From Spinactinospora alkalitolerans (GTDB taxonomy: Bacteria; Actinomycetota; Actinomycetes; Streptosporangiales; Streptosporangiaceae): a stretch of DNA of 64,000 nt. The notes beneath the pieces are model-generated. The model saw only the letters and a list, made by a program, of their open reading frames with translations, had not been told where the DNA came from and did no database searches. The stretch's first letter is position 1. The number at the start of each line of letters is the position of its first letter. Below, piece by piece: positions 11,989 through 21,469 of the stretch. The stretch is from the NCBI RefSeq assembly GCF_013408795.1, contig NZ_JACCCC010000001.1:4588001-4652000 (forward strand), written 5' to 3'. A program made the translations under genes and the position numbers.

Positions 11989-12996
11989 CTACTGCGCCTG
12001 GACTCCGAAGGCCTCTTCCATGTCGTCCAGGATGGCGTTGGCGCCCTGGAGGCTCACCGAGGTCAGCCACTCGGTGTCGTCCACCTGGTGCTGCTCGCCC
12101 TCGAGCTGGTCCCACAGCGGGTTGGTCGCGAACTCGTCCGCGCCCTTCTGGGACTCCCCGGTGCCGTCGTTCCACACCGAGACGAAGATGTGGTCGGCGT
12201 CCAGGTCGAGGATCTCCTCCTGGCTGAGGTCGACCGAGATGTCGTCGGCGGCGTCGGGCGCGCCCTCGGGCCGGGGCAGGCCCACGTCGCTCTGCACGAT
12301 GCCGGTGAAGGAGTTGGAGGAGTACAGCCGGACCTTGGGGCCGCCCACGAAGCGGGCCAGCGTCATCGTCGGGGCCTCGCCGCCGGACTCCTCGGTGATC
12401 GCCTCGCCGAGCGCGGCGGCGCGCTCGTGGTAGGCGTCCAGCTTCTCCGCCGCCAGGTCCTCCTTGCCGGTGGCCCGGGCGAGCAGCTCGATGTTGTCCT
12501 TCCAGGTCGCCCCGGTGGTCTCGGAGAAGACGGTGGGGGCGATCCGACTGAGCTGGTCGTAGACGTCCTCGTGGCGGACCTTGGCCGAGACGATCAGGTC
12601 GGGTTCGAGCTCGGCGACCTCGGCCAGGTCCGGCGCCTCCAGGTCGCCGACGATGGTGGCGTCGCCCGCGTAGGTCCGGCCCTCCTCGCCCAGGTAGGCC
12701 GGGAGCGCTTCGTCACCGGCGGCGTAGGTGATCCTGCCCACCACGTCCAGCTCCAGGGCGACCGCGGCGTCAACGTAGCTGCTGTCGAGCGCCACAATGG
12801 TCATGGGCTCCGATTCGACCGTCGTCTCGCCCATCGCGTGTTCGACCGTGATCGGGAAGCCCTCGGATCCGGCGGCGGCCGCCTCGTCGGCCTCGTCCGC
12901 GCCCGAGGAGCAGCCGGTCAGCAGGGCGATCGCTGCGGCCGCGGATACGGCGAGCCACGAGCGCCCGAATGCCCGCGAGCGAGCGGCAAACGACAT
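11989..12996 (-). CDS. Iron-siderophore ABC transporter substrate-binding lipoprotein
   Basis: 335 aa. The signal peptide has a lipobox (ALLTGC, Cys near residue 29), followed by a two-lobed periplasmic-binding type III domain (TIVALDSSYVDAAVALELDV; PDLIVSAKVRHEDVYDQL; TVFSETTGATWKDN), as in FepB/CeuA-like ferri-siderophore receptors. It would deliver a ferric siderophore to the permease/ATPase genes divergently encoded from 13134. The shared promoter region contains a DtxR-type iron box, so low-iron induction is expected. The exact siderophore cannot be told. Confidence 0.92.
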   Translation of the reverse strand: MSFAARSRAFGRSWLAVSAAAAIALLTGCSSGADEADEAAAAGSEGFPITVEHAMGETTVESEPMTIVALDSSYVDAAVALELDVVGRITYAAGDEALPAYLGEEGRTYAGDATIVGDLEAPDLAEVAELEPDLIVSAKVRHEDVYDQLSRIAPTVFSETTGATWKDNIELLARATGKEDLAAEKLDAYHERAAALGEAITEESGGEAPTMTLARFVGGPKVRLYSSNSFTGIVQSDVGLPRPEGAPDAADDISVDLSQEEILDLDADHIFVSVWNDGTGESQKGADEFATNPLWDQLEGEQHQVDDTEWLTSVSLQGANAILDDMEEAFGVQAQ

Positions 12997-13024
12997 GGGG
13001 GACCCCTTACGTGTATAACCTGCG

Positions 13025-13043
13025 TTAGGTTTGTCTAGCCTAA
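13025..13043. promoter_or_regulatory. DtxR/IdeR/DmdR iron box
   Basis: TTAGGTTTGTCTAGCCTAA, a 19-bp imperfect palindrome matching the actinobacterial iron-regulator consensus TTAGGTTAGSCTAACCTAA at 16 positions. It lies between the divergent siderophore-binding protein gene and the permease operon, so one iron-dependent repressor site could serve both. Confidence 0.85.
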
Positions 13044-13133
13044 GGCTCGGACGTTTTGTCCGTGATCAGGGAGTATGCGGATCCACTCGCCGTTTGTCCA
13101 GTATCGGCGGGCCCACGATTGAGGAGTGAGGGT

Positions 13134-14195
13134 GTGATCGAACCCGCGCTCGCCGAGCGGAGGCGCCGACCACGCGCCGATTCACCGGCCGCCGTCACCA
13201 AGGGGCGACGGCGCGTCATCGGGCTTGTGATCCTTCTCGCTCTGCTCGGGGCCGCCGCGGTCGCCAGCGTCTCCGTCGGGTCCCGCTTCATCCCGCTGCC
13301 CCAGGTGTGGCACCTGCTCCTCTTCCCCGACGGCGGCGAGGCCGGCACGATCGTGCGGGAGCTGCGGATCCCCCGCACCGCCCTGGGCGTCCTGATCGGC
13401 GTCGCGCTGGGCGTGGCCGGCGCGCTCATGCAGAGCCACACCCGCAACCCGATCGCCGACCCGACCCTGCTCGGCATCGCCTACGGCGCGGCGTGCGCCG
13501 TGGTGATGAGCATCTTCCTGCTCGGGATCACCAGCATCGCCGGATACGTGTGGTTCGCGCTGGCCGGCGCGCTCCTCGCCAGCGTGGCCGTCTTCGCGCT
13601 GGCCTCCGGCGGGAGCCGGGGCCCCACCCCGGTGACCCTCGTGCTCGCCGGCGCGGCGATGACCGCGCTGCTCAGCGGCATCACCTCGGCGATCGTGCTG
13701 CTGGACCAGCAGAGCCTGGACGTCTACCGCTTCTGGCGGGTCGGCTCGCTGGTGGGCCGGCACTCCGACGTGATCTGGCAGGTGCTGCCCTTCATCGCCG
13801 TCGGCCTGCTGCTGGCGCTGGTCAACGCCCCCGGGCTCAACGCCCTGGCCCTCGGCGACGACGTGGCCACCGCACTGGGCCAGCGCGTCCGGCTCACCCG
13901 CGCCACCGGGGTGCTCGCCATCGCCCTGCTCACCGGCGCGTCGGTCGCCGCGGCCGGGCCCATCGGATTCCTCGGGCTGATGGCGCCGCACCTCGCGCGC
14001 GCCGTCACCGGCCCCGACCACCGGTGGCTGCTGCCCTACGCCGGGATGCTGGGAGCGGTCATCATCCTGGTCGCCGACGTCATCGGCCGGATCGTCCGCG
14101 GCACCGGAGAGGTGGAGGTCGGGATCATCCTCGCGGTGGTGGGCGCCCCCTTCTTCATCGCGCTGGTCCGACGCAGGAGGCTGATCGCCCTATGA
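13134..14195 (+). CDS. FecCD-family iron-siderophore permease 1
   Basis: 353 aa from GTG 13134, chosen for its GAGGAG box 7 bases upstream (the frame is open to 13056, but that extension lacks a ribosome site). About nine to ten membrane spans. Family segments LRIPRTALGVLIGVALGVAG, MQSHTRNPIADPTLLGI and GPIGFLGLMAPHLAR (the coupling region to the ATPase) are clear. The stop overlaps the next permease start (ATGA, 14192-14195). Inner half of a heterodimeric siderophore importer. Confidence 0.92.
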   Translation: MIEPALAERRRRPRADSPAAVTKGRRRVIGLVILLALLGAAAVASVSVGSRFIPLPQVWHLLLFPDGGEAGTIVRELRIPRTALGVLIGVALGVAGALMQSHTRNPIADPTLLGIAYGAACAVVMSIFLLGITSIAGYVWFALAGALLASVAVFALASGGSRGPTPVTLVLAGAAMTALLSGITSAIVLLDQQSLDVYRFWRVGSLVGRHSDVIWQVLPFIAVGLLLALVNAPGLNALALGDDVATALGQRVRLTRATGVLAIALLTGASVAAAGPIGFLGLMAPHLARAVTGPDHRWLLPYAGMLGAVIILVADVIGRIVRGTGEVEVGIILAVVGAPFFIALVRRRRLIAL

Positions 14196-15289
14196 CCGCC
14201 TCGCCTCCCCGCTCGCCGGCCCCCGCGACGCTGAATCGGCGCGCGCTGCGGCTGGGCCCCGCGTCGTGGCCCTGGCGGCCCCGCCCGCTGCTGGTCGGCG
14301 CCGCCGTACTCGCCGTCCTGCTCGCACTGTTCGTCCGGGCGCTGCTGGCATTCGACGACTACCCGATGGACCTGGGCGACGTGGTCTCGACGCTGCTGGG
14401 CGGCGGCGACGGCGGTCAGCGGTTCGTGCTGTTCGAACTGCGGATGCCGCGCGCGCTGACCGCAGCCCTGGTCGGCGGCGCGCTCGGGCTCTCCGGCGCC
14501 ATCATGCAGGGCATCACCCGCAACCCGCTGGCCAGTCCTGACACCCTCGGCATCGCCTGGGGCGCCTCGGTGGGCGCCGTCGCCGTGATCATCCTCGGCG
14601 GCAGCGCGGGCGGGGTGAGCGGCCTGGTCTCCGAGCTCGGCGTCCCCCTCGGGGCGCTGGTCGGCGGACTGGGCGCGGCCGTCATCGTCTTCGGGCTGTC
14701 CTGGCGGTCCGGGGTGGAGAACAACCGGTTGCTGCTCGTGGGCATCGCGACCTCGCTACTCTGCGCCAACCTGGTGTACTGGGCGCTGACCTGGACCGAC
14801 ATCCAGGACGCCGCCCGGGCCCAGACCTGGCTCACCGGCAGCCTGCACGCCGCCGACTGGGATCGGGCCGGCCCCGCCGCGCTGGTCCTCGGGGTGCTGC
14901 TGCCGCTGACCCTGGTCGCCGCCCGGATCCTCGGCGCCCTGGGCCTCGGCGACGACACCGCGCGCGGGCTGGGCGTGCGCGTGGACGCCTCCAGGCTGCT
15001 CCTGCTGGTGGCGGCGGCGCTGCTGGTGTGCGTGGCGACCTCCGCGGCGGGCCCGGTCAACTTCGTCGCCCTGGCCGCCCCGCAGATCGCGCTGCGGATG
15101 TGCAAGGCGGCCCAGCCGCCGCTGATGACCTCCGCGCTGACCGGCGCGGCGCTCACGCTGGCCGCCGACCAGTTGGCCGCGGGCCTGTTCGCCCCGACCC
15201 AGCTCCCGGTGGGCGTGTTCACCTCGGTGCTGGGCGCGCCCTACCTGATGTACCTCATCGTCCGCCGCCACAGGGAGGCACGTCTGTGA
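14192..15289 (+). CDS. FecCD-family iron-siderophore permease 2
   Basis: 365 aa, ATG 14192 overlapping the previous stop. FecCD motifs (LRMPRALTAALVGGALGLSG; MQGITRNPLASPDTLGIAWG; GPVNFVALAAPQIALRM) and about nine membrane helices. The coupling loop has AAPQIALRM where the partner has MAPHLAR. Pairs with permease 1 and the ATPase that follows; its stop overlaps the ATPase GTG (GTGA, 15286-15289). Confidence 0.92.
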   Translation: MTASPPRSPAPATLNRRALRLGPASWPWRPRPLLVGAAVLAVLLALFVRALLAFDDYPMDLGDVVSTLLGGGDGGQRFVLFELRMPRALTAALVGGALGLSGAIMQGITRNPLASPDTLGIAWGASVGAVAVIILGGSAGGVSGLVSELGVPLGALVGGLGAAVIVFGLSWRSGVENNRLLLVGIATSLLCANLVYWALTWTDIQDAARAQTWLTGSLHAADWDRAGPAALVLGVLLPLTLVAARILGALGLGDDTARGLGVRVDASRLLLLVAAALLVCVATSAAGPVNFVALAAPQIALRMCKAAQPPLMTSALTGAALTLAADQLAAGLFAPTQLPVGVFTSVLGAPYLMYLIVRRHREARL

Positions 15290-16143
15290 ACCCGGCCGAT
15301 CCGTCCCCGCCCTCGGAGCCGCGGCTGCGCGCCGACGGCGTCACGCTCGCCTACGGCGACAACGTGATCATCGAAGACCTGGACTTCTCCGTCATCGACA
15401 ACGCCGTCTCGGCGATCATCGGCCCCAACGGCTGCGGCAAGTCCACCCTGCTGCGCGCGCTCGGCCGGCTGCTGCGGCCGGCATCGGGGCGGGTGCTCCT
15501 GGACGGCCGCGGCATCGCGGCGATGCCGCCGCGGGAGGTGGCGCGAACCGTCGCGGTGCTGCCGCAGTCTCCGCAGGCACCACCGGGCCTGACAGTCACC
15601 GACCTGGTGGCGCGCGGCCGCCACCCGCACCAGAGCTGGTACCGGCAGTGGTCCTCCACCGACCACGGCGTGGTCGCCGAGGCCCTGGAGATGACGGGCA
15701 TGCTCCCCTACGCCGAGCGGACGCTGGAGCAGCTCTCCGGCGGTCAGCGGCAGCGGGCCTGGATCTCCATGGCGCTGGCCCAGGGAACCGACCTGCTGCT
15801 GCTCGACGAACCGACGACCTTCCTCGACCTCGCACACCAGATCGAGGTCCTGGACCTGGTGCGCGACCTGCACGAGGAGCACGGCCGGACGGTCGTCATG
15901 GTGCTGCACGACCTCAACCTCGCAGCCCGCTACGCCCACCGGCTGGTCGCGATGCGCGAGGGCGGGATCACCGCCCAGGGCCGCCCCGACGAGGTGCTCA
16001 CCCCCGCGCTGATCTCCGGCGTCTTCGGCCTGGACTCCACCGTCATCCCCGACCCGGTGACCGGAACGCCCATGGTCGTCCCGATCGGAACCCGCGACCG
16101 GGGACCGGCGCAGCACGCCGGCCACTCCGCCGCGTCCCCGTGA
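15286..16143 (+). CDS. Siderophore ABC transporter ATPase (FecE/FhuC type)
   Basis: 285 aa, GTG start overlapping the permease stop. Walker A GPNGCGKST (near residue 46), Q-loop VLPQSP, signature LSGGQRQRAW, Walker B LLLLDEPTTFLDL and the switch His in VLHDLNLA are all intact. The length and DEPTTFLDLAHQIEVLDL string are typical of FepC/FhuC. Completes the three-gene import operon; shares the iron box with the binding protein. Confidence 0.95.
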   Translation: MNPADPSPPSEPRLRADGVTLAYGDNVIIEDLDFSVIDNAVSAIIGPNGCGKSTLLRALGRLLRPASGRVLLDGRGIAAMPPREVARTVAVLPQSPQAPPGLTVTDLVARGRHPHQSWYRQWSSTDHGVVAEALEMTGMLPYAERTLEQLSGGQRQRAWISMALAQGTDLLLLDEPTTFLDLAHQIEVLDLVRDLHEEHGRTVVMVLHDLNLAARYAHRLVAMREGGITAQGRPDEVLTPALISGVFGLDSTVIPDPVTGTPMVVPIGTRDRGPAQHAGHSAASP

Positions 16144-16144
16144 C

Positions 16145-16861
16145 TCATCCCGAGGTGTCCTCGTCGTTCTCCCGCCTGATCCGATTCCATAGTTCGATCC
16201 GGACATAGGCATAGAAGTGCGGCATCTTTCTGAGGTTCCTCAGCAGTTCGGCCGCAGCGGGCATCCCCGTCTCCAGCACGTCGACGATGTCCGCCGCAAG
16301 ACTGGACGCCCTGCCGGCGAGCTGCCCCACCGGCGCGGTGGCACCCTCGTACAGACGCTCCTCAGCAGCGAGAAACCGATCCAGCCCCGCCGGCTTCCCC
16401 CGCTTGTGCCGAGGCTCCACCTTCGGCCCGTCCCCCCGCGTATACCTCGGCCCCTCCCCCTTGTGCCGCGGCCCGCCCACCGGCTTCGGCGTCTCCTCCC
16501 CGCCTCCGCCGGCACCGTCCGTCGACGTTCGGCCGCTCGTTCCCGATGGGACCGACCCGGCGGAGCCGCCTCCCGCCGCCAGGCGGGCGGCGTAGCCGTC
16601 GGCGTTGTCGGCGAAGCACTCCAGCGCCTTCAGGGCCCTGTCGAGCCGATCCGACGCCGCCCCCGCCCACTGCGCGGCCTCACGCAGCGTCGGATGACCC
16701 CGCAGCGACACCGGAGCCGCATACCTCGCCTGGCCTTGCAGCGCCGCAGCGACCGATGCGATGCGCCGCCGCCTTTCCGCCAGGTCCGCGTTCAACCGCT
16801 CGGCGTCAGCGCCGAGCCGCCGCACGGCCGCGGCGAGTCTCTCCAGTTCCGAGCCTGCCAT
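16145..16861 (-). CDS. Hypothetical protein with ESX-substrate-like N-terminus
   Basis: 238 aa. The first ~95 residues are helical (MAGSELERLAAAVRRLGADA), with WAGAASDRLDRALKALECFA, resembling the helical hairpin region of WXG100/LXG-type secreted proteins. A Gly/Ser/Pro/Lys-rich disordered linker follows (~95-155). The C-terminal ~80 residues are a separate helical domain ending HFYAYVRIELWNRIRRENDE. No signal peptide or membrane span. It lies 5 bases after a WXG100-like gene in an operon headed by an FtsK ATPase, so it may be an exported substrate. No family or activity recognised. Confidence 0.65.
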   Translation of the reverse strand: MAGSELERLAAAVRRLGADAERLNADLAERRRRIASVAAALQGQARYAAPVSLRGHPTLREAAQWAGAASDRLDRALKALECFADNADGYAARLAAGGGSAGSVPSGTSGRTSTDGAGGGGEETPKPVGGPRHKGEGPRYTRGDGPKVEPRHKRGKPAGLDRFLAAEERLYEGATAPVGQLAGRASSLAADIVDVLETGMPAAAELLRNLRKMPHFYAYVRIELWNRIRRENDEDTSG

Positions 16862-16866
16862 CGGGG

Positions 16867-17127
16867 TCAGATCCCGGCCGCATACCTGTTCGCCACCCTC
16901 GCCGCCTGCCGCAGCGCCAGCACCGCCTGCTCAACCTCCTTCTGGGCGGCCTGGAGGGTCGCGATCATCTCCTGGTCGACCTTCTGGGCCGATCCGCCGA
17001 CCGTCGCCGACACCTTGGCCACCTCCCCGGAGAACCGGCCACCGTAGGCAGCCAGTGCGCCCGCCGTCCTATCGGCCTCCGCGGCCAAGGAAGCGACGTG
17101 CGCCTTCAACTGCGACAACTGCGACAT
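16867..17127 (-). CDS. WXG100-like small helical protein
   Basis: 86 aa, almost entirely helical (MSQLSQLKAHVASLAAEADR ... VEQAVLALRQAARVANRYAAGI), with a central GG-containing turn region rather than a clear WXG. Size, composition and position fit the EsxA/B-like helical hairpins that accompany FtsK-type secretion ATPases. The missing Trp-X-Gly leaves membership tentative. ATG chosen over the longer frame because the upstream part is low-quality and a GAAGAAGG sequence precedes it. Four-gene minus-strand operon. Confidence 0.65.
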   Translation of the reverse strand: MSQLSQLKAHVASLAAEADRTAGALAAYGGRFSGEVAKVSATVGGSAQKVDQEMIATLQAAQKEVEQAVLALRQAARVANRYAAGI

Positions 17128-17161
17128 TTCTGCACCCTTCTTCGGAAACCGACAAACTCGA

Positions 17162-17956
17162 TCAGAATCTGACCTCCGAGAGGCACCATCCGCCGTCGTC
17201 CGCCGAGAAGACGAACACGCCCTCCCGCGTCTCCGGCTCACCGGGAACCGTCGCCTCGAAGGCCAGCCGGGCGCCGTCGCCGGATTCGTCCGGTTCTTCG
17301 GCGGCCTCGACGGCGAGCCCCTCCGGGATGTCGACGTCTCCGCGTCCGACGCTGCCGCAGGCGATGCCGGCGAGCATGTCCGCGTCGGCCGTGTTGTAGG
17401 CCTCGACGGCGACGTCCGCGGCTTCCCTGGCCGTGTCGGAACGGAGCGGCTCCGGCGGGGTCAGCCGGCGGATGACGAACACGGCGAGGACGACGACCAC
17501 GGCGATCACGAGCGCGACCGCGGCCAGGAAGGCGGCGGTCCGCAAAGCGCATGTCCGGCGCATGTCGGCGCGGACCCGCGCGTTCCTCGCCGCGGCTCTC
17601 CTGCGCTCCTCGGCGCCGACTTTGCGCGTCAGCTCCTGAAAGGCCCGCTCCGCCTCGTCGAGCGCCGTGGCGACCGCCTCGGTGTCGGTACGCGCCTCAC
17701 CATCGGCGGAGCCGTCGATCTCCAGCCGGTCCGCGAGTCCCAAGGGCCTGAGTTTGAGCTCGGCTCGACGGCACAGCTCACGGCGCCGCTTCTCGGCGCG
17801 GCCGGCGGTGTCTCGCAGTTCGTCGGCCTGCCGGTGAGCCTCGTCGAGCCGCTGCCGATGCGCCGATCGCCGGTCGGTGAGAGTCCGCTCGAGCTCGGCC
17901 TCCGCACCACTGATCCGGGCCGCGGCCGCCAGGTAGGCATCCCATGCCTCGCTCAT
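17162..17956 (-). CDS. Coiled-coil membrane protein of the FtsK cassette
   Basis: 264 aa. Residues ~10-130 form a long charged coiled coil. A single hydrophobic helix (~139-163, FLAAVALVIAVVVVLAVFVI) follows, then a ~100-residue C-terminal domain predicted outside the membrane, with an AYNTADADMLAGIACGSV motif typical of Mce/DUF4878-like lipocalin-type modules (tentative). Its ATG overlaps the FtsK stop (ATGA 17953-17956). It could be the membrane anchor for the soluble ATPase, a role filled by built-in membrane helices in canonical EccC. Confidence 0.75.
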   Translation of the reverse strand: MSEAWDAYLAAAARISGAEAELERTLTDRRSAHRQRLDEAHRQADELRDTAGRAEKRRRELCRRAELKLRPLGLADRLEIDGSADGEARTDTEAVATALDEAERAFQELTRKVGAEERRRAAARNARVRADMRRTCALRTAAFLAAVALVIAVVVVLAVFVIRRLTPPEPLRSDTAREAADVAVEAYNTADADMLAGIACGSVGRGDVDIPEGLAVEAAEEPDESGDGARLAFEATVPGEPETREGVFVFSADDGGWCLSEVRF

Positions 17957-20754
17957 GCGTCCCACGGCTCCGCTGTCAGCGCGCGGACGTCGTCCTCGGT
18001 GATCGGGCCGAACGGGACGATCGTCGTCGGCTCGCCCCCGGTGCGGTCGTGCAGCAGGCCGCGCGGCCCCCGCGGGTTCCACGTGACCAGTGGCCCGAAC
18101 AGGTCCTGGACGTCCCGGCCGCTGATCCGCAGGCCCAGGATTCCGTCGATGGTGTCCTGGGCCTCCAAGCCGACGTGCTCGTTCATCACGCGCACGCTCG
18201 ACCACCACGCCAGCAGGTGGGCGCCGACCGGCGGGCCGTGCTTGAGCAGCGCGTGCAGACCGTCGGCCGGGGTCGCGGCCCCACCGCCCGACAGGTCGAA
18301 CTCCCGCGACAGACGCAGCCGGTCCAGGCCGAGGCCGATGACGTACAGGCTCGACCCTGGAGTCCCGGCTTGGCGCTCCTCCAGCATTCCCGGCAGTTTC
18401 CGCAGGTAGGGATCGACCTTCGTGCGCCCCAGGCGGAGCACGCCCGCGCCGAGGCGGGTCAGCGTGCGCTCCAGGGCGTCGACGCCGAGCGTGTCGGAGG
18501 TTTCCGCGGGCAGCAGGTCGAGGACGACGAACTCGCAGTCTCGCGCGGGGTGCTGCAGTGCCAGACTCACAGCGGCGGCCTGCACGGCCCCGACCGCCTG
18601 GTTCCCGCCGCCGTTCGCGGCCCCCGAGTAGCGCGAGTCCCCCGCGCCGACGACGGCGAGGTGCCTGCCGTGGTCATCGGTGAGGGCGAAGCCCACCGCG
18701 GGAACCCCGACGTCGATCGCCGTGCCGAGCAGCGCGACGCGCGCGGCCCGGCCCGCCCGTTGCCGGCCGCGTAGTTCGTGGAGGCGGCCGACCGCGCCCG
18801 ATATCCGCTGGGCGGCCGACCCGTCGAAGAGGACCGGGACGGCAACGGAGTCGCCGACCCGGGCACAGACTCGCTCGCGTAGGCTCCGCAGCCTGGCCTC
18901 GTCCGCCCAGGCCACCGTCGCCCGCCGGTTGGCCTCGGCGGAGCCGGATTCCAGGTTCACCACCGCTTCACCGCGGTAGCGCAGCCTGGACGCCTCCGTA
19001 TTCTCCTGGTCGAGCACGGCCCGGGACTCCGATGGGGAGTTCTTCAGGGCCAGCCTGACGGGGAACTGCGCGAAGATCCCGTCCTGCTTCGCGAGCATCG
19101 AGATGATACCGGACAGGGTCTGGGACGCCAGCACGAGGTGCATGCCGTAGGCGCGCCCCTTCCTGGCCAGCCGTTCGAGGTCGGCGAGAGCACGCTCGGT
19201 GATTTCGTCGTCGGCTTCGAACAGCACCTGGAACTCGTCGATGACCGTCACGATCCGCGGCAGCACGTGCGACGGGTCGGCCCGCCGGTACTTGAGGAGG
19301 TCGTCGCCGTAGGAGCGGATGAGAGCGGCCCGGCGGTCGAACTCCTCGACCAGATGGGCGAGCACGGCCGCACCGTACTCGCGGTCGCTGTTCAACCCGA
19401 CGGTCCTGGCGTGCGGGAGCCATGACCGGCTGCCCGGGCGCGGGCCGAGCGGCTCGAGCGTGATGCCCTCCTTGAAGTCCAGCAGGTGCATCTCCAGCTC
19501 GGCCGGGGCGTAGCGCATGGCAAGGCTGTGCACCAGCACCATCAGCAGGTTGGACTTCCCCTGCCCGACGGCCCCGGAGACCAGGATGTTGTGCCGCTGC
19601 TCCCGGTCGTCGCCGAGGACGATCTCAATCGGTTCGTGGCCTTCCCGGCCGATGGTCGCCACCAGCCGCTCGGCCGACGAGTCGGACATCAGCGGCAGCC
19701 GGGGCTGCAGCTCGAGGAAGTCGATGTGCGGTGCCTCCGCGGCCTTGGCGCGCTCGGCGATGCGTGTCACGGCGGGCGCGAGATCGGCGGCGGGCGGCGG
19801 CTGGATCGTCCATCCCGGCAGCCATCCGGGCTCGAACCGTCCAGACGTGGCCGCGACCACGTTGCCGAGCTCGACCAGCGTGTCGGACTGGTCGTCGACC
19901 GTGCCCCCGCACCGCATCCGGGGGTCGTACTGCAGGATGGTGCTGATCCCGCAGGCCGGGCCTTGGCGCATGATGCTCACCAGGCTGCGGACGGCGTCTT
20001 CGGAGAAGCCCTGCGGGTAGTCGCACACGACGAGCAGCTGGTAACCGCCGACGGGCTGGCCCGTCTGCCGCCGGAGTTCCCCCAGTGTCGTACGGCGCCC
20101 TTGAAACGTGTCCACCGTCTGCCGGATGTCGTCGACCAGTGCCGCGAGCGACTGCTCGATGTCGGTCCCCGTCCCCGCCGGGCGCGGCAGCAGATCCTCG
20201 TTCACCTTGGCCAGCGGCGCGAAGGCCGAGGTCACCGCGCGCAGCCCGGGATCGATACCGCGGATCGCGACCTGGCCGGGTCCGCTGCGCTCCAGGGCTT
20301 GGCGGACGACGGATCGGACGAGGCCGCCGACGTCGTCGTCCCATGCGCCCGCGATCACCAGGTTGCCGTGGTCGAGCAGCGGCACCGGCGCGGGCACGCG
20401 CACGCTCTGGTCCGCTCGGCCGCCGGCGCCCGCATGAGTGGCGATCCCGAGCCCGACGTATTCGGCGGCGTCCAGCAGACCGGCCGGCGCGGACGGTTCC
20501 GGCAGCAGTTCCTCCGCGGCGTTCTGAGCCGCGGTCCGCGCCCGCGCGAACTCGGCCGCCATCCGCTCCCGGGTCGCGGCCTCGTCGCGCGCGTGCCGCC
20601 GTTCGGAATCGGCCACGCGTGACTCCCGCTGCCGCTGCGCCCCTCGGGTCAGCGAGTCGGCGGCGTCACGCAGGCCGGCCGCCTTCTCGGCGAACTCCGC
20701 GACCGCACGGAGCAGCGCCGCGGGAGTCCTGGTTGGGTCCTCGCCCGACGGCAT
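17953..20754 (-). CDS. FtsK/SpoIIIE-type ATPase with three modules and coiled-coil N-terminus
   Basis: 933 aa from ATG 20754 (AGGGGGAGC upstream; the frame is open further but non-coding in character). Residues 1-90 are a coiled coil. A degenerate ATPase-like module spans ~100-330 and lacks Walker A. The central module carries Walker A GAVGQGKS (394-401), Walker B VTVIDEF (~502-508) and LASQTLSG. A C-terminal degenerate module covers ~690-930. Three RecA-like modules recall EccC of type VII secretion, but no membrane helix is present and the active module is the middle one. DNA translocase and protein-export roles are both possible. Confidence 0.85.
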   Translation of the reverse strand: MPSGEDPTRTPAALLRAVAEFAEKAAGLRDAADSLTRGAQRQRESRVADSERRHARDEAATRERMAAEFARARTAAQNAAEELLPEPSAPAGLLDAAEYVGLGIATHAGAGGRADQSVRVPAPVPLLDHGNLVIAGAWDDDVGGLVRSVVRQALERSGPGQVAIRGIDPGLRAVTSAFAPLAKVNEDLLPRPAGTGTDIEQSLAALVDDIRQTVDTFQGRRTTLGELRRQTGQPVGGYQLLVVCDYPQGFSEDAVRSLVSIMRQGPACGISTILQYDPRMRCGGTVDDQSDTLVELGNVVAATSGRFEPGWLPGWTIQPPPAADLAPAVTRIAERAKAAEAPHIDFLELQPRLPLMSDSSAERLVATIGREGHEPIEIVLGDDREQRHNILVSGAVGQGKSNLLMVLVHSLAMRYAPAELEMHLLDFKEGITLEPLGPRPGSRSWLPHARTVGLNSDREYGAAVLAHLVEEFDRRAALIRSYGDDLLKYRRADPSHVLPRIVTVIDEFQVLFEADDEITERALADLERLARKGRAYGMHLVLASQTLSGIISMLAKQDGIFAQFPVRLALKNSPSESRAVLDQENTEASRLRYRGEAVVNLESGSAEANRRATVAWADEARLRSLRERVCARVGDSVAVPVLFDGSAAQRISGAVGRLHELRGRQRAGRAARVALLGTAIDVGVPAVGFALTDDHGRHLAVVGAGDSRYSGAANGGGNQAVGAVQAAAVSLALQHPARDCEFVVLDLLPAETSDTLGVDALERTLTRLGAGVLRLGRTKVDPYLRKLPGMLEERQAGTPGSSLYVIGLGLDRLRLSREFDLSGGGAATPADGLHALLKHGPPVGAHLLAWWSSVRVMNEHVGLEAQDTIDGILGLRISGRDVQDLFGPLVTWNPRGPRGLLHDRTGGEPTTIVPFGPITEDDVRALTAEPWDA

Positions 20755-21437
20755 GCTCCCCCTACACGGGAAAAACGGAAAAGGCCGCAGCCCTGGACGG
20801 CGGTGGAGACGGTCTCCGAATACCCGGCCCTTTGATCGGCCACGCCCGATCGCAACGCCATGGCCACTTCTTTTCCAAATCCGGATTTTCAGCATCTTAG
20901 CCGGGGCCATCGGCGCTCACAAGCCGGATTTACCCGGGAATTCCTGCGCACACCGGTGACGCGCCGATCCGTCCCCACCCTCCCCGTGCTTCCCACCGCG
21001 CTCCGGTTTTTGCGAGCCGTTGATCCGATGGGTATTCGGCTGCACCGTGCGTCCATTGCGGGACGAGGGCGGAGCGCACCGGACCGGGTCGGACCGCGGT
21101 GCCGCGGATACGGCGGATCTTCGGCATCGAGCTCCACCTGGAATGGAAGCCGCCCAACGGTCCGTTCTTCATCGGAAAGTCCGGACGTGGCCGGGTTGCC
21201 TCTCACCGAACTCTGACCGCTGCGTTCGCGGGTCGGGGTGGATTCTCAAGGCTCGGACCCGCCATGCCGCCGGCGCTACGCGCACTGCGACAGCCAACCC
21301 CCTGTGCGGACCCGATCGTCGAACATCAGTCAGCCCGCCTCACATGTTCTCAGCGGAGCAGCGGCTCAGAACACCGGCCGTAACGGCGAACCGCAGCCGG
21401 TCTTGACACCGCTCCCCGTCGCCGCCGACACCAACGC
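20755..21437. other. Gene-free region upstream of the FtsK cassette
   Basis: About 680 bases without a convincing gene. It should hold the promoter of the minus-strand FtsK operon; an A/T-richer patch around 20860-20900 is the most promoter-like part. A repeat copy occupies 21214-21333. A short frame at 21099-21213 (MPRIRRIFGIELHLEWKPPN and on) reads like coding sequence and runs into the repeat, but lacks a ribosome site. Confidence 0.4.
21214..21333 (+). repeat. Three-copy intergenic repeat, copy A
   Basis: Begins GACCGCTGCGTTCGCGGG and ends CGATCGTCGAACATCAGTCAG-like. It aligns end to end with 27902-28023 (same orientation) and the reverse complement of 56521-56639, at roughly 75-80 percent identity by eye. 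The most constant parts are GTTCGCGGG, GCCGCCGGCG and CCCCCTGTGCG. A small hairpin (GCGCAC...GTGCG) recurs in all copies. Confidence 0.75.
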
Positions 21438-21463
21438 AAAAAGCCAGGCTCCCGGCCTGGCTT
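21438..21463 (-). terminator. tRNA-Asn terminator
   Basis: On the minus strand AAGCCAGGC, loop CGGGA, GCCTGGCTT, then a T-run, starting 6 bases past the tRNA 3' end. Classic intrinsic terminator with a 9-bp stem. Confidence 0.85.
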
Positions 21464-21469
21464 TAAAAG

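What the first reader, a model, noticed from the sequence alone, without database searches (positions are those of the whole stretch)
16145..20754. Four-gene T7SS-like cassette without EccB/D/E
An FtsK-type ATPase with three RecA-like modules (only the middle one has Walker A) and an N-terminal coiled coil is coupled to a coiled-coil single-span membrane protein. A WXG100-sized helical protein follows, then a protein with helical N-terminus, disordered linker and separate C-terminal domain. Canonical type VII loci need EccB, EccD and EccE and a membrane-embedded EccC; none is here. The membrane helix seems to have been moved to a partner protein. This could be a minimal export machine or an FtsK-powered contact or DNA-handling system not yet described.
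Basis: partly seen in the sequence, partly recalled or inferred. Interest (0 to 1): 0.7.

Follow-up and report, generated by a model that had tools for sequence, protein, structure and literature searches.

The report
Stripped-down type VII-like secretion cassette
Four linked genes in an actinobacterium look like a cut-down version of the type VII protein exporter; the basic kind was already noted in the literature, but here the motor has handed its membrane anchor to a partner protein and belongs to a branch whose relatives carry their own Hsp70 chaperone genes.

Summary
The ATPase (933 aa) has an N-terminal coiled coil, no membrane helix and three RecA-like modules, with Walker A only in the middle one. 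Over residues 124-919 it aligns with the cytoplasmic part of EccC. A 4-bp overlap couples it to a coiled-coil, single-span membrane protein. An 86-aa helical hairpin follows; its family profile finds ESAT-6 in register (E 0.003). The fourth protein has a helical N-terminus and a separate C-terminus.

The genome (one 6.7 Mb contig) has no canonical EccC, EccB, EccD or WXG100; relatives gave positive controls for EccB and EccD. Homologues form one clade (100/99) apart from EccC and FtsK, across several phyla and plasmids, often with WXG100-like genes, sometimes with toxin genes. A Rhodococcus plasmid has the same four genes in order behind Hsp70-DnaJ/TPR-GrpE; its fourth protein has a different C-terminus, as expected of a secreted substrate.

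The kind is not undescribed: Zhang 2012 and Bell 2024 report WXG100 operons whose three-module ATPase is active only in the middle. New here are the coupled membrane partner, the Hsp70-linked branch, and its standing as the genome's only recognisable type VII-like locus. Export is inferred; no pore was identified.

The parts
17953..20754 (-). EccC-like three-module ATPase, 933 aa, no membrane helix
   Evidence: PF01580 E 3.5e-23; TIGR03924 EccCa E 1.8e-24 but 86 bits against a cut-off of 509; profile best PDB hit EccC 4nh0 E 4e-42; structural alignment to 4nh0 over residues 124-919
20509..20724 (-). N-terminal coiled coil (residues 11-82), in the place where EccC has membrane helices
   Evidence: AlphaFold2 secondary structure
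19735..20385 (-). module 1 (about residues 124-340), degenerate, no Walker A
18820..19734 (-). module 2 (about residues 341-645), the only one with an intact Walker A; invariant DEFQ
   Evidence: FtsK motor Z 30, rmsd 2.5, 269 aligned
19552..19575 (-). Walker A GAVGQGKS (residues 394-401)
19228..19239 (-). Walker B region DEFQ (residues 506-509), invariant in the family
17995..18741 (-). module 3 (about residues 672-920), degenerate, no Walker A
17162..17956 (-). coiled-coil single-span membrane protein, 264 aa, translationally coupled to the ATPase; C-terminus like Rv0361-family membrane proteins
   Evidence: ATGA overlap; hydropathy; NF051431 E 2.9e-6, below its cut-off; homologues with the same 4-bp overlap in L037-L039 and L079
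17468..17536 (-). membrane span (about residues 141-163)
16867..17127 (-). WXG100-sized helical hairpin protein, 86 aa; turn GGSAQ at residues 44-48, where ESAT-6 has its WxG turn
   Evidence: AlphaFold2; 52% identical to the Rhodococcus plasmid protein in the same slot; family profile best PDB hit ESAT-6 E 0.0029, 10-82 on 10-82
16145..16861 (-). 238-aa protein: helical N-terminal domain (about 1-95), Gly/Pro/charged linker, C-terminal segment (about 159-238); putative substrate
   Evidence: sequence; N-terminus 30-33% identical to slot partners in L079, L070, L049; C-terminus unlike that of L079
21469..21542 (-). tRNA-Asn whose 3' side faces the cassette; edge of a variable chromosomal slot

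Best explanation
A stand-alone, minimal type VII-like export cassette. Shown: the ATPase is an EccC relative with one intact module, lacks the EccC membrane part, and is coupled to a coiled-coil single-span membrane protein. Inferred: the ATPase coiled coil pairs with that of the partner, so that the motor docks at the membrane. The 86-aa hairpin pairs with the helical N-terminus of the 238-aa protein as an ESAT-6/CFP-10-like targeting pair. ATP hydrolysis in module 2 then drives the 238-aa protein, with or without the hairpin, across the membrane, its variable C-terminus being the payload. Relatives add a dedicated Hsp70-DnaJ/TPR-GrpE set, perhaps to hold substrates export-ready; here the housekeeping DnaK could serve. 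What forms the pore is unknown.
For: Module-2 profile scores family members 132-429 bits, EccC 91-122, FtsK 61-78. The family is one clade, 100/99, apart from EccC ATPase 1, EccC ATPase 2 and FtsK. Structural alignment with EccC spans all three modules. WXG100-profile proteins occur in the same operons: L080 89 aa E 3.6e-7, above cut-off; L073 1.6e-5; L082 7.6e-5 and 2.7e-4; L075 5e-4; L053 1.5e-5. A Rhodococcus plasmid has the same four genes in the same order, with an unrelated C-terminus on the fourth. Putative cargo in relatives: papain-fold glutamine deamidase on a helical N-terminus in Clostridia L053; WHH/colicin-DNase toxin with SUKH immunity protein next to the ATPase on a Helicobacter plasmid. 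Own genome has no EccC, EccB, EccD or WXG100 above threshold, with positive controls in relatives for EccB/D. Published readings of the same kind as secretion-related: PMC3482391, PMC11090510.
Against: No pore-forming component and no direct evidence of export. The 86-aa protein alone scores WXG100 at only E 0.04 and lacks WxG. Its model's structural matches to Esx proteins are tied with unrelated hairpins. No immunity gene follows the 238-aa protein, and its C-terminus has no recognised function. Several family members (L037-L039, L042-L044) show no evident adjacent hairpin gene.
Confidence: 0.6

Rival explanations
1. An intracellular conflict (defence or stress) module: the ATPase, membrane-tethered partner and hairpins form a sensing or remodelling assembly that acts inside the cell; nothing is exported.
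For: Relatives sit with TerY-P-type and CARF genes on a Caballeronia plasmid, with an Mrr-type nuclease (L040) and with E1/JAB genes. Bell et al. 2024 find the same ATPase inside CoCoNuT defence loci and note that a different mechanism is likely because the membrane helices are missing. PADLOC profiles SspH and mad8 hit module 2.
Against: PADLOC hits are to the generic FtsK module only. The window cassette carries no recognised nuclease or sensor gene. The membrane protein and the variable C-terminus on a conserved helical N-terminus fit export better.
Confidence: 0.22
2. An FtsK-type DNA pump or partitioning machine with membrane tether and helical accessory proteins.
For: Module 2 superposes on the FtsK motor (Z 30, rmsd 2.5 over 269 residues). 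Some relatives are next to a ParA/MinD-like ATPase gene (L042-L044; read by eye).
Against: Three-module layout as in EccC, tree position apart from FtsK, and WXG100-like and toxin genes in relatives; the host already has an ordinary FtsK.
Confidence: 0.07
3. A decaying remnant: the cassette has lost its Hsp70 trio, immunity gene and part of the substrate, and no longer works.
For: The closest relatives have Hsp70-J-GrpE upstream (L079, L072, L069, L037) which is absent here, and no dedicated copy was found elsewhere.
Against: All four frames are intact with strong third-position GC, tight spacing and conserved catalytic residues.
Confidence: 0.11

Closest known systems
Stand-alone WXG100 / three-module FtsK systems ('mobile versions of T7SS'), Zhang et al. 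2012, PMC3482391; CoCoNuT-associated EssC homologues, Bell et al. 2024, PMC11090510
   Same: Three FtsK-like modules with only the middle one active; N-terminal coiled coil in place of FHA and membrane helices; small WXG100-like partners; patchy, partly plasmid-borne distribution
   Different: Here the ATPase is translationally coupled to a coiled-coil single-span membrane protein and belongs to an Hsp70-linked actinobacterial branch; these features are not mentioned in the passages read
Canonical T7SSa / ESX (EccB, EccC, EccD, EccE, MycP)
   Same: EccC-like motor; ESAT-6-like hairpin; second protein with helical N-terminus
   Different: No EccB or EccD in the genome; motor without membrane part; the intact module is the middle one
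T7SSc-T7SSj of Garrett et al. 2024, PMC11217815
   Same: EccC/EssC-type ATPase plus WXG100-type protein, other partners differ
   Different: Those motors are membrane-bound with four predicted NTPase domains; most have a YukD-like protein; none is described with this gene set
Helicobacter pylori 'WXG100 secretion system' gene cluster (HP0062, HP0066), PMC4978471
   Same: WXG100 protein, FtsK-type ATPase, HNH nuclease and a DnaK homologue in neighbouring clusters
   Different: Gene-content report only; its ATPase was not compared here. A Helicobacter plasmid relative (L083) falls in another branch of the family

Membership tests
Canonical T7SSa (ESX) | EccC above the curated cut-off (TIGR03924) | tested here: not met
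   86 bits against 509; no place in the genome above cut-off
Canonical T7SSa (ESX) | EccD in the genome | tested here: not met
   no match; 6 of 7 relatives searched alongside are positive
Canonical T7SSa (ESX) | EccB in the genome | tested here: not met
   no match; 3 of 7 relatives positive
Canonical T7SSa (ESX) | EccE and mycosin | not tested
   no search was run
T7SSc-T7SSj | membrane-bound ATPase | tested here: not met
   no convincing membrane span in the ATPase; definition from PMC11217815
Stand-alone WXG100 / three-module FtsK system | three FtsK/HerA modules, only the middle one active | tested here: met
   single Walker A, in the middle module; three modules in the model; activity itself not assayed
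Stand-alone WXG100 / three-module FtsK system | N-terminal coiled coil in place of FHA/membrane helices | tested here: met
   helix 11-82, no membrane span; definition from PMC11090510
Stand-alone WXG100 / three-module FtsK system | WXG100 protein in the operon | tested here: inconclusive
   right size, hairpin model with turn at the right place, profile hits ESAT-6 at E 0.003, but WXG100 profile E 0.04 and no WxG motif in the 86-aa protein
WXG100 superfamily (86-aa protein) | WXG100 profile above cut-off | tested here: not met
   14.5 bits against 27.3; 13.9 against 44.85
FtsK DNA translocase | groups with FtsK motor domains | tested here: not met
   separate clade, 100/99
CoCoNuT | CnuB/CnuC (McrB/McrC-like) genes alongside | not tested
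   flanks were read only as ORFs; no McrB/C search was run

The most novel reading that the evidence does not exclude
A distinct, portable export machine in which the EccC-like motor is soluble and borrows its membrane anchor from a tail-anchored coiled-coil partner, with substrates prepared by a dedicated Hsp70 system in most close relatives; it works without any known T7SS pore protein.
Probability: 0.3. Interest if true: 0.75.

Novelty: new variant of a known kind. Interest (0 to 1): 0.5.

Why it matters
Which parts of the type VII machine are truly needed for transport, and whether WXG100 proteins and an EccC-type motor suffice, is open. A four-gene cassette in a genome with no other recognisable type VII parts could be deleted or moved as a unit, which makes the question directly testable. 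The Hsp70 link would be a new idea for how such substrates are delivered.

Tried and rejected
Canonical ESX: rejected on EccB, EccC, EccD. FtsK/DNA pump: rejected as main reading by tree, layout and neighbours. Known defence family (PADLOC): only generic FtsK-module hits. Phage origin: only short IMG/VR or faecal 'phage' contigs with E1/JAB-type or partial matches, probably bacterial. Integration mark: no copy of the tRNA-Asn 3' end beyond 11 bases near the cassette. Identity of the 238-aa C-terminus: no plasmid tblastn match; the only sub-1 PDB hits to the protein are N-terminal (a histidine kinase E 0.007, EsxB E 0.4-0.5), and the N-terminal profile did not recover EsxB, so that lead is weak. 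The different C-terminus of the Rhodococcus protein looked caspase-like by eye but has no database support. PDB matches of the hairpin model are tied with unrelated hairpins; the Foldseek list has Esx proteins on top, but at E 0.1-0.3. A family-wide search in 300-400 genomes failed twice for technical reasons.

Full report
Observation. All have high third-position GC. The ATPase stop overlaps the next start by 4 bp. Only one Walker A is present in the ATPase. The AlphaFold2 model (mean pLDDT 66) shows an N-terminal helix of 72 residues and three alpha/beta modules. Z-scored alignment places residues 124-919 on the cytoplasmic part of EccC from Thermomonospora curvata, 664 residues aligned (Z 26.9); the rmsd of 17 probably reflects different placement of the modules. 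The middle module alone fits the FtsK motor best (Z 30, rmsd 2.5, 269 aligned).

Family. A profile of the middle module gives at least 132 bits for all family members, including those not used to build it, 91-122 for EccC, and 61-78 for FtsK. A tree of 72 domains keeps 30 family members as one side of a branch with 100/99 support. Members were found in Actinomycetota, cyanobacteria and Clostridia, and on plasmids of Rhodococcus, Caballeronia, Deinococcus and Helicobacter. In a draw of 396 Actinomycetota genomes, 9 had a match at E 1e-60; this is a lower limit, as only two candidates per genome were scored. Among 25 genera of the host family, three have one at E 1e-40 or better.

Neighbours. 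In 18 of 27 loci an automatic count finds at least one soluble 65-125-aa protein in the operon, and in 17 a short protein with a membrane span; the ATPase has no predicted span in 26 of 27 (the gene caller missed annotated small genes, for instance in L079 and L080, and these counts have no background control). WXG100-profile matches among them run from E 3.6e-7 down. Putative toxins are next door in Clostridia (papain-fold deamidase on a helical N-terminus) and on a Helicobacter plasmid (HNH nuclease plus SUKH immunity protein).

The branch of this cassette. The window ATPase groups with those of a Rhodococcus plasmid (L079), L072, L069 and L037-L039. The loci that reach far enough upstream (L037, L038, L069, L072, L079) have an Hsp70 gene, most of them with DnaJ/TPR and GrpE genes. 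L079 matches the window gene for gene: ATPase (38% identical over 90%), coiled-coil membrane protein, 86-aa protein (52% identical) and a fourth protein with related N-terminus and unrelated C-terminus. The 4-bp overlap between ATPase and membrane protein recurs in L037-L039 and L079. The window lacks the Hsp70 set; the best Hsp70 match elsewhere in the genome is a 630-aa frame, consistent with ordinary DnaK.

The host. The genome, one contig of 6.7 Mb, has three PF01580 proteins: FtsK, this one and one in a stretch with integrase and replication-type genes. It has no EccC over cut-off, no EccD, no EccB and no WXG100 match. Relatives with EccB/EccD have them on other contigs than the cassette relatives, so this is not an appendage of ESX loci.

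Site. The cassette fills the space between tRNA-Asn and a siderophore ABC operon. In four relatives the same tRNA and the two genes beyond it are kept, but the cassette side holds other genes; in G008 the tRNA and the same siderophore operon flank about 4.3 kb of other DNA. This fits a variable slot and gain by transfer, but no integrase or att repeat was seen.

Small proteins. The 86-aa model is a hairpin with its turn at residues 44-48, where ESAT-6 has its WxG turn (ESAT-6 detail from general knowledge). A four-member profile has ESAT-6 as best PDB match at E 0.0029, residues 10-82 on 10-82. Single-sequence tests are weaker, and structural matches are not specific. So 'WXG100-like' is likely, not proven.

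Prior art. Zhang et al. 2012 mention the kind in a table footnote. Bell et al. 2024 describe the ATPase in detail, suggest secretion by a different mechanism for lack of membrane helices, and cite Anantharaman et al. 2012 for a mobile stand-alone operon. A Helicobacter pylori pan-genome paper lists a 'WXG100 secretion system' cluster with a DnaK homologue. Garrett et al. 2024 describe eight other subtypes, all with a membrane-bound motor. I found no mention of the coupled membrane partner or of the Hsp70-J-GrpE set with this ATPase in the passages read; a search for Hsp70, GrpE, FtsK and type VII secretion together gave one genome paper, not opened. Anantharaman 2012 itself was not read.

Verdict. 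An ordinary gene set it is not, but neither is it a wholly new kind. It is an actinobacterial variant of a sparsely documented WXG100/three-module-ATPase system. Export, membrane docking and chaperone supply are inferences that a deletion and secretome experiment could settle.

Noticed in passing
L053:3594-9413, L075, L076, L077, L078: The same ATPase family, with WXG100-like genes, sits behind E1 (ThiF) and JAB genes and a possible E2-like gene in Clostridia and some Actinomycetota: a ubiquitin-like conjugation set joined to a type VII-like cassette. E1 and JAB were confirmed by Pfam for L053 only; the rest is by eye.
   Followed up: partly
L080 (Caballeronia plasmid pSBC2-5): TerY-P-type set (VWA, PP2C, Ser/Thr kinase), CARF protein, WXG100 protein and the ATPase in one run of genes.
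   Followed up: no
L040:12795-14225 and L041: Mrr-type nuclease protein (PF04471 in L040) convergent with the ATPase plus three helical proteins, recalling the coiled-coil nuclease reported with CoCoNuT-linked homologues.
   Followed up: no
window 16144-21468: Variable slot on the 3' side of tRNA-Asn: four related genera keep the tRNA and the 103- and 161-aa genes but carry other DNA on the cassette side.
   Followed up: yes
window 11989-16143: Siderophore-type ABC transporter (binding protein, two permeases, ATPase; by eye) converging on the cassette with almost no gap.
   Followed up: no
L042, L043, L044: A second branch of the ATPase family lies between a ParA/MinD-like ATPase gene and a gene for a protein with three hydrophobic spans, followed by an amidohydrolase-like gene; no hairpin gene adjacent.
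   Followed up: no
L050:7676-8242: In the cyanobacterial locus a single-span protein follows the WXG100-like genes and, by eye, its outer domain resembles that of the window membrane protein; not tested.
   Followed up: no
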